From Oscillospiraceae bacterium (GTDB lineage Bacteria > Bacillota > Clostridia > Oscillospirales > Oscillospiraceae): DNA of 32,755 nt. The translations under genes and the position numbers were made by a program. Below, one piece after another: positions 19,107 to 19,268 of this stretch (the first letter of the stretch is position 1; every line of letters begins with the position of its first letter). The DNA lies in contig JAAWKB010000015.1 of assembly GCA_022797115.1 (NCBI GenBank), positions 1 through 32,755 on the forward strand. The letters run 5' to 3'. The notes beneath the pieces were generated by a model. That model was given only the letters and a program-made list of their open reading frames with translations, did not search any database and was not told the DNA's origin.

Positions 19107-19132
19107 TTATCAAAAGGTACACCTTTTGACAG
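19107..19132 (+). repeat. Hin-like recombinase crossover site 1
   Basis: A 26-bp imperfect palindrome: left half TTATCAAAAGGT, centre AC, right half ACCTTTTGACAG. The inner 8+8 bases are perfectly symmetric around the centre. Length, 2-bp centre and the TTATCAAAA end match the design of crossover sites of Hin/Gin-type serine invertases. It lies in the leader of the surface-protein operon. Confidence 0.75.
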
Positions 19133-19254
19133 CCGACCTGTGTACATAAATATATCACACAAAATCCGCAATTGCAATGGTTTAGAATGAAATTTTGTTT
19201 TTTTGTGTATACTCTTTTTCAGTGCCTTCCAGAAATAGGCAAATATCAAAAGGT
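19121..19254. other. Putative invertible DNA segment carrying the surface-operon promoter
   Basis: These 134 bp lie between the central dinucleotides of two inverted crossover sites. The segment is AT-rich, has no ORF, and contains the extended -10 promoter at 19149-19177 aimed at the surface-protein operon. Exchange at the sites would flip the promoter away from the operon without damaging the recombinase gene, whose stop codon (19261-19259) lies outside the crossover point. In this assembly the switch is ON. I infer the function; the layout is seen directly. Confidence 0.7.
19149..19177 (-). promoter_or_regulatory. Extended -10 promoter inside the invertible segment
   Basis: On the minus strand TTGCAA (19177-19172), 17 bases and TATATT (19154-19149), with TGA directly before the -10 box (extended -10). 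It points toward the gene at 18980, with transcription starting near 19142 and a leader of about 160 bases. No promoter of similar quality is visible on the opposite strand of the segment. Confidence 0.65.
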
Positions 19255-19268
19255 GTACTTATTGACAG
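19243..19268 (-). repeat. Hin-like recombinase crossover site 2
   Basis: Read on the minus strand: left half CTGTCAATAAGT, centre AC, right half ACCTTTTGATAT. Its centre is AC only on the minus strand, whereas site 1 has AC on the plus strand, so the sites are in inverted orientation, which gives inversion rather than deletion. The stop codon of the recombinase gene is inside this site. Confidence 0.75.

What the first reader, a model, noticed from the sequence alone, without database searches (positions are those of the whole stretch)
19107..19268. Invertible promoter switch for a surface-protein operon, driven by a Hin-like serine recombinase
Two 26-bp imperfect palindromes (19107-19132 and 19243-19268) differ at few positions and each has a 2-bp centre. 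AC is the centre of site 1 on the plus strand and of site 2 on the minus strand, so they are inverted copies that would yield inversion. The ends TTATCAAAA and CAAAAGGT resemble Hin/Gin-type crossover sites. The 134 bp between the centres carries an extended -10 promoter (TTGCAA, 17 bases, TATATT) aimed at a two-gene exported-protein operon. An intact serine recombinase gene lies on the other side, its stop codon inside site 2 but outside the crossover point, so it survives both states. Serine-invertase promoter switches for SLH-linked proteins are, as far as I know, little described in Clostridia, where known cell-surface switches use tyrosine recombinases.
Basis: partly seen in the sequence, partly recalled or inferred. 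Interest (0 to 1): 0.88.

Follow-up and report, generated by a model that had tools for sequence, protein, structure and literature searches.

The report
Invertible promoter switch for surface proteins
A gut bacterium carries a 134-base piece of DNA that a neighbouring enzyme most likely flips back and forth, turning surface-protein genes on or off, and the same kind of switch recurs in many related gut bacteria.

Summary
Observation confirmed; interpretation largely supported. Two palindromic sites with inverse 2-bp centres (AC/GT, 136 bp apart) bracket an extended -10 promoter that, as assembled, faces a two-gene exported/SLH operon; a serine recombinase gene ends inside the other site. No reads were available, so no flipped copy of this very segment was seen. 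Comparative evidence is strong: 79 of 137 recombinase genes examined have such a pair, 73 of the 79 with inverse centres, and spacing is periodic at 10.5 bp; site sequence tracks the recombinase's DNA-binding part; homologous segments occur in both orientations; the same genome has a second, recombinase-less switch in the opposite state; Evtepia gabavorous has five such pairs, all before SLH proteins, one beside a recombinase. Possible new feature: the recombinase-side site looks like a terminator that forms only in the OFF orientation. A 2026 paper reports hin with ~120-bp FliA-promoter inversions at clostridial flagellin loci; I saw no report of the surface-protein branch in ten searches, but supplements and most subscription papers were out of reach. 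New variant of a known kind.

The parts
19107..19132 (.). distal (target-side) crossover site, centre AC at 19119-19120
   Evidence: the target-side site on contig C73 of the same genome matches it over 29 bp without a mismatch
19243..19268 (.). proximal (recombinase-side) crossover site, centre GT at 19255-19256; overlaps the recombinase stop codon
   Evidence: inverse centres as in 73 of 79 pairs
19121..19254 (.). 134-bp segment between the two centres, predicted to invert
   Evidence: inverted homologous segments in relatives and at C73 in the same genome
19149..19177 (-). promoter TTGCAA-17-TGA-TATATT, facing the surface-protein operon (ON as assembled)
   Evidence: score 17.4, 99th percentile of mononucleotide shuffles 16.9
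19269..19279 (+). T-run just outside the proximal site; with the site it would form a terminator-like hairpin in the OFF orientation
   Evidence: -11.8 kcal/mol OFF, -3.6 ON, 8 T of 10; family trend. One search lists no terminator in the assembled (ON) sequence
19259..19885 (-). small serine recombinase (P0001, 208 aa), the likely invertase
   Evidence: R9, S11, R46, D68, R69, R72 present
17256..18980 (-). exported protein P0002 (574 aa, InlB-B-like repeat), first gene of the switched operon
15941..17239 (-). exported SLH protein P0003 (432 aa, three SLH stretches), second gene of the switched operon

Best explanation
A phase-variation switch. The serine recombinase encoded at 19259-19885 binds the two palindromes, pairs them through a short DNA loop, cuts at the 2-bp centres and inverts the 134 bp between them. 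With the promoter facing left, the P0002-P0003 surface operon is ON (the assembled state). Flipped, the promoter faces the recombinase's 3' end; the recombinase-side site then has better-matched arms followed by a U-run and probably terminates that transcript. The same recombinase probably also flips a second switch on contig C73, before an exported LRR protein. Shown by comparison: site architecture, inverse centres, helical spacing, both orientations of homologous segments, co-variation of site and recombinase. Inferred: that this protein acts on these sites, that the promoter is active, that the hairpin terminates, that the C73 pair is acted on in trans.
For: Pairs within -80..+500 of the recombinase stop at score 9 or better: 30 of 63 against 0 of 630 shuffles and 1 of 62 upstream controls; 54 of 80 named loci. 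With the centre ignored in choosing, 79 pairs of 137 recombinase genes: 73 inverse centres (GT/AC, AC/GT, AA/TT, TT/AA, AG/CT), 4 self-complementary, 1 direct, 1 other. Spacing periodic at 10.5 bp: R=0.73, n=74, 0 of 20000 jittered sets reach it; 0.72 for 56 cluster representatives. Of 18 pairs of matching segments 4 are inverted (L053/L066, L133/L169, L137/L169, L050/L068; L133 and L137 are near-identical, so three cases); for the first three the distal flanks match in the same orientation. Promoter direction where clear: 27 toward the recombinase, 7 toward the target, of 85. Arm state agrees with promoter direction in 21 of 21 cis loci where both are clear, Fisher 4.9e-5. Mantel r=0.63 between site and recombinase C-terminal distances, 0 of 2000 permutations, n=77. 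The C73 segment aligns with the window's in reverse. Contig ends gather within 200 bp after the recombinase stop, 6 of 80. PMC13418256 reports ~120-bp inversions downstream of hin in Flavonifractor plautii.
Against: No reads and no second strain of this species: no flipped copy of this very segment was seen. The genome is a 75%-complete draft. P0002 has no full-length relative in 24 other genomes of the genus and the switch DNA has no counterpart there beyond one 27-bp match. 26 of 80 named loci gave no pair; a looser look with the TCAAAARGT-type pattern found 2 missed pairs, 12 with a single site, 2 with two ill-matched sites and 10 with none. Of 85 pairs 39 had no clear SigA-type call and 12 were ambiguous; the arm rule left 26 of 85 undecided. 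The 85 include pairs scoring 10, which 3 of 630 shuffles also reach. Outside the 21 cis loci, one search shows one disagreement of arm state and promoter score (L194). Only 34 of 81 first downstream frames passed a simple signal-peptide rule, so targets are not all surface proteins.
Confidence: 0.9

Rival explanations
1. The palindromes are paired operators: the recombinase or another protein binds both and represses the promoter through a DNA loop, without recombination.
For: Spacing quantised at 10.5 bp fits looping as well as synapsis.
Against: Looping needs neither inverse 2-bp centres (73 of 79) nor opposite orientations of homologous segments between same-oriented flanks; six catalytic positions are invariant in 77 of 77 recombinases.
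Confidence: 0.05
2. The palindromes are res-type subsites or ends of a small mobile element, and the recombinase acts in resolution or transposition.
For: Among solved structures the protein is nearest to Sin and gamma-delta resolvases.
Against: Resolution needs directly oriented centres; 1 of 79 pairs has them, and that one (L093) is a GC-rich palindrome unlike the rest. The proximal site lies a median 14 bp after the recombinase stop, within 60 bp in 80 of 85.
Confidence: 0.03
3. A once-working switch, now frozen in the ON state in this species.
For: Site 2 has two mismatched core pairs; only one state is seen.
Against: The recombinase is intact, site 1 is a perfect palindrome, and a second switch with two perfect sites is kept on C73 in the other state.
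Confidence: 0.08

Closest known systems
hin with ~120-bp FliA-promoter inversion upstream of csrA-tldR loci, Flavonifractor plautii (PMC13418256, section 11 read whole, other passages)
   Same: Recombinase gene immediately upstream of a short inverting promoter segment. The window's own genome has two loci of that layout (C80, C110: recombinase, 115-bp site pair, TnpB-like gene, flagellin).
   Different: There a FliA-type promoter, flagellin and RNA-guided repressor; here a SigA-type promoter, SLH/LRR surface proteins, a 136-bp spacing, another half-site, and a further pair without a recombinase of its own.
Mpi of Bacteroides fragilis (PMC4747536, passages)
   Same: A serine recombinase flipping several distant promoters for surface structures (13 regions there).
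   Different: NCBIfam Mpi model scores 33 bits against a cut-off of 272. Here the recombinase lies beside one of the switches, the promoter is SigA-type and the products are surface proteins.
Hin/hix of Salmonella (recalled, with passages of PMC11868660)
   Same: Serine invertase, ~26-bp sites with a 2-bp centre, promoter inversion.
   Different: Hin lies inside a segment of about 1 kb and uses Fis and an enhancer (recalled); here the gene lies outside a 134-bp segment and spacings are helically phased.
RecV switches of Clostridioides difficile (PMC5903667, passages) and Clostridia inverton group 139 (PMC11892184, section 8 read whole)
   Same: Invertible promoters in Clostridia, some before surface genes.
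   Different: Those are linked to tyrosine recombinases. Other inverton groups of PMC11892184 (such as Firmicutes_A group 125) may include switches of the present kind; its supplements were not seen.

Membership tests
Serine-recombinase promoter inverton (general kind) | intact small serine recombinase with catalytic Ser and Arg residues | tested here: met
Serine-recombinase promoter inverton (general kind) | inverted crossover sites with inverse 2-bp centres | tested here: met
   family 73 of 79
Serine-recombinase promoter inverton (general kind) | promoter between the sites, facing a gene in one orientation | tested here: met
   by sequence only; activity not tested
Serine-recombinase promoter inverton (general kind) | both orientations of one segment in one population | not testable with these tools
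   no reads held; only inversions between loci and species and contig ends at the switch
Hin/Gin DNA invertase family | closest sequence relatives are Hin/Gin | tested here: inconclusive
   Sin and gamma-delta rank above the DNA-invertase chains, but only solved structures were compared
Hin/Gin DNA invertase family | Fis-bound recombinational enhancer | not tested
   no search made; that Clostridia lack Fis is recalled
Mpi master invertase (NCBIfam PRK13413) | score above the equivalog cut-off | tested here: not met
   33 bits, cut-off 272
Multi-locus control as by Mpi (function) | same sites at distant loci without a recombinase beside them | tested here: met
   C73 in this genome; 4 of 5 pairs in Evtepia gabavorous; action in trans not shown

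The most novel reading that the evidence does not exclude
The recombinase-side crossover site is also a transcription terminator that exists only in the OFF orientation: one flip turns the promoter and at the same stroke assembles (OFF) or dismantles (ON) a long hairpin with a U-run. With this two-in-one switch a single clostridial invertase drives a multi-locus, phase-variable repertoire of large SLH/LRR surface proteins (five in Evtepia gabavorous, at least two in this species), and synapsis over about 115-190 bp relies on helical phasing rather than on an enhancer.
Probability: 0.5. Interest if true: 0.86.

Novelty: new variant of a known kind. Interest (0 to 1): 0.76.

Why it matters
It would give gut Clostridia a recognisable on/off switch for cell-surface proteins, a counterpart of the Bacteroides capsule switches. 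The site motif, the inverse centres and the 10.5-bp spacing make it searchable in genomes and read sets. The spacing rule gives a direct test of how a serine invertase pairs sites over about one DNA persistence length. The orientation-dependent hairpin, if it terminates, would be an unusual economy: recombination site and terminator in one.

Tried and rejected
Res-type or mobile-element reading: disfavoured by the inverse centres. Looping-repressor reading: kept as a rival, disfavoured. Viral contigs: 15 relatives of the recombinase but 0 exact matches to a paired-site pattern; the 15 loci were not examined for other site types. The same locus in 24 other genomes of the genus: no flipped ortholog. 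Own-genome recombinase loci C77 and C60 (L041, L042) gave no credible site pair (scores 14 and 16), although flagellin genes lie near. Promoter scores for the trans loci suffer from TTGA supplied by the site arms: of 9 loci, arm state and promoter score agree in 5 (L191, L192, L193, L207, window), disagree in 1 (L194: arms OFF, promoter ON), and are undecided on one side in 3 (L195: arms ON; L196: promoter OFF; L206: target unknown). The SigD/FliA consensus is recalled; 10 of 85 segments reached my cut-off of 10 of 12, two of them (L066, L053) before flagellin genes; L039, L040 and L046 score 9 and L092 and L098 score 8, below it, and were called SigD-like by eye.

Dropped rows: L104 (same contig as L043), L093 (GC-rich palindromes) and L173 (weak) before the 85-locus set; 3 of 66 genes as too short; pairs more than 190 bp apart (5 of 79) before the spacing test. 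The threshold for the 85 loci was 10. The hairpin energies (58 loci) are partly circular because the state was set by arm matching; the T-run asymmetry and the agreement with promoter direction are not. The contig-end bins were chosen after seeing the data.

Full report
What is there. Two palindromic sites, 19107-19132 and 19243-19268, have centres AC and GT and lie 136 bp apart. With up to 3 mismatches the pattern occurs nowhere else in the window. Between the sites is an extended -10 promoter facing left. To the left are P0002 (InlB-B-like repeat) and P0003 (three SLH stretches), 16 bp apart, both beginning like exported proteins. To the right, reading toward the switch, is an intact 208-aa serine recombinase whose TAA stop lies in site 2, two bases beyond the centre, so inversion would not change the protein.

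Is the pair more than chance? From the listed hits (62 of 99 relatives have a homologue; the list was cut) I fetched 64 loci besides the window, mostly the best-scoring ones, giving 66 recombinase genes. The best pair of imperfect 9+2+9 palindromes near the stop reached a score of 9 or better in 30 of the 63 genes with enough sequence, against 0 of 630 dinucleotide shuffles and 1 of 62 upstream controls; at 10 it was 33 of 63, 3 of 630 and 3 of 62. A scan of named genomes kept the best 80 of 575 relatives, by their titles mainly Lachnospiraceae, Oscillospiraceae and other Clostridia; 54 of 80 had a pair at 9 or better. Of the other 26, 2 have pairs that my search window missed (L110, L130), 12 show a single site, 2 show two ill-matched sites and 10 show none of this site type.

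Do the sites behave like recombination sites? With the centre left out of the choice, 79 of 137 recombinase genes had a pair at score 8 or better. In 73 the centres are inverse, in 4 self-complementary, in 1 direct and in 1 neither. The centres change between loci (GT/AC, AA/TT, AG/CT) but keep matching within a locus, as the 2-bp exchange of a serine recombinase demands. Site sequence co-varies with the recombinase, more with residues 150-200 (Mantel r=0.63) than with residues 1-135 (0.41), 0 of 2000 permutations each, n=77; six positions that match known catalytic residues by alignment are invariant in 77 of 77.

Spacing. Most distances fall at 113-116, 124-128, 134-139, 145-147, 156-158 and 168-169; 122, 151, 176, 176 and 187 lie outside. 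For the 74 distances of at most 190 bp the strongest period between 6 and 20 is 10.5 bp (R=0.73), reached by 0 of 20000 sets jittered by up to 8 bp; 56 representatives at 85% recombinase identity give 0.72. The sites thus lie on one face of the helix, as expected for synapsis through a short loop. A repression loop would ask the same, so this alone does not prove recombination.

Has inversion happened? Of 18 pairs of matching segments, 14 have the same orientation and 4 the opposite. For L053/L066 (two flagellin loci of one genome), L133/L169 and L137/L169 the flank beyond the distal site matches in the same orientation, so only the segment is turned; L133 and L137 are near-identical, so this is two cases, and L050/L068 is a third without a flank match. 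Promoter direction is mixed: 27 toward the recombinase, 7 toward the target, 12 both, 39 without a clear call, of 85. In the window's own genome contig C73 has two perfect sites 137 bp apart before a frame with a BspA-type LRR match that runs off the contig; none of the genome's six recombinase matches lies on C73. Its target-side site matches the window's over 29 bp, but its inner segment aligns with the window's in reverse (score 25 against 16 forward; 2 of 1000 shuffles reach 25) and its promoter faces away. The two switches of one genome thus stand in opposite states. Contig ends also gather at the switch: 6 of 80 named loci end within 200 bp after the recombinase stop against 0.95 per 200-bp bin elsewhere (Poisson 4.5e-4, bins chosen afterwards). 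In Anaeromassilibacillus sp. An200 two contigs end exactly at the inner edge of a site. Mixed orientation in the sample would cause this; it is suggestive only.

A terminator built by the flip. The arms of the sites often extend beyond the core. I compared arm matching as assembled and after a virtual flip. Where the promoter faces the recombinase, arms match better as assembled in 16, better after a flip in 0, undecided in 11; where it faces the target, 0, 5 and 2; Fisher for the decided 21 is 4.9e-5. In the trans loci the two agree in 5 of 6 decided cases and disagree in L194. The recombinase-side site is followed, read toward the recombinase, by a T-rich stretch (T 4.8, A 1.8 of 10; TTTT within 14 nt in 41 of 85) that the target-side site lacks (T 2.7, A 2.7; TTTT in 8 of 85). 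For the window the hairpin is -11.8 kcal/mol OFF and -3.6 ON, with 8 T of 10; one search finds no terminator in the assembled ON form. The simplest reading is a terminator that keeps the OFF transcript from running antisense into the recombinase gene. In the ON form the transcript still crosses the perfect distal palindrome (-14.2) but then meets 3 T of 10.

More than one target. Thirteen named genomes were searched for the site. Evtepia gabavorous KLE1738 has five pairs 136-139 bp apart, one of them with self-complementary AT centres, and a variant pair at 114 bp. One of the five lies beside a recombinase (74%); a second recombinase (64%) lies on another contig. The six neighbouring proteins are 978-1336 aa and all carry SLH repeats; the genome has 124 SLH matches. 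The arm rule reads four of the five pairs as OFF and one as ON. One invertase serving several surface-protein promoters is likely but not shown. Across the survey the first downstream frames vary: Pfam finds LRR_5 in 5, AMP-binding in 4, TnpB-like domains in 4, flagellin in 3, Band 7 in 3 and SLH in 2 of 81; proteins were cut at 560 aa, so C-terminal SLH repeats are undercounted.

What is known. My ten paper searches, of which I saw listings and, for five papers, passages or sections, showed no serine-invertase promoter switch for SLH proteins in Clostridia. [quoted passage not shown] The window's genome has the matching surroundings: recombinase genes on C80, C77, C60 and C110 lie within about 3 kb of flagellin genes, and C80 and C110 have 115-bp site pairs. 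PMC11892184 links its main Clostridia inverton group to tyrosine recombinases; the word serine is not in its main text, but its supplements, which may list such switches, were not seen. The 2019 PhaseFinder paper is not held.

Verdict. A real switch architecture, almost certainly of a working kind; a new variant of the serine-invertase promoter inverton. The action of this very protein on these very sites remains inferred.

Noticed in passing
L039 (G000:C110) and L040 (G000:C80): Two further recombinase loci of this genome have a 115-bp site pair, a SigD-like promoter (by eye; 9 of 12, below my cut-off), a TnpB-like gene whose first RuvC motif looks lost by eye, and a flagellin gene: the layout of the csrA-tldR loci of PMC13418256.
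   Followed up: partly
L053 and L066 (G029:C53, G029:C59): Two flagellin loci of one genome have homologous switch segments in opposite orientation.
   Followed up: yes
L025, 2117-2365 (same place as in L061): Three sites instead of two, 113 and 116 bp apart; may allow nested inversions.
   Followed up: no
L207, about 735-872, minus strand: A short frame resembling a small helix-turn-helix (excisionase-like) protein lies between the site and the exported LRR gene of the second switch; read by eye.
   Followed up: no
window 20140-21228: A divergent exported protein with one SLH stretch (P0004) lies just upstream of the recombinase; no sign that the switch controls it.
   Followed up: no
L046, L057, L060, L070, L082, L092, L098: Both sites have self-complementary AT centres, which in principle would allow deletion as well as inversion.
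   Followed up: no
L206 (Pseudoflavonifractor sp. 60, contig C392), 4276-4431: A further site pair, 136 bp apart, with no recombinase in the 9 kb fetched.
   Followed up: no
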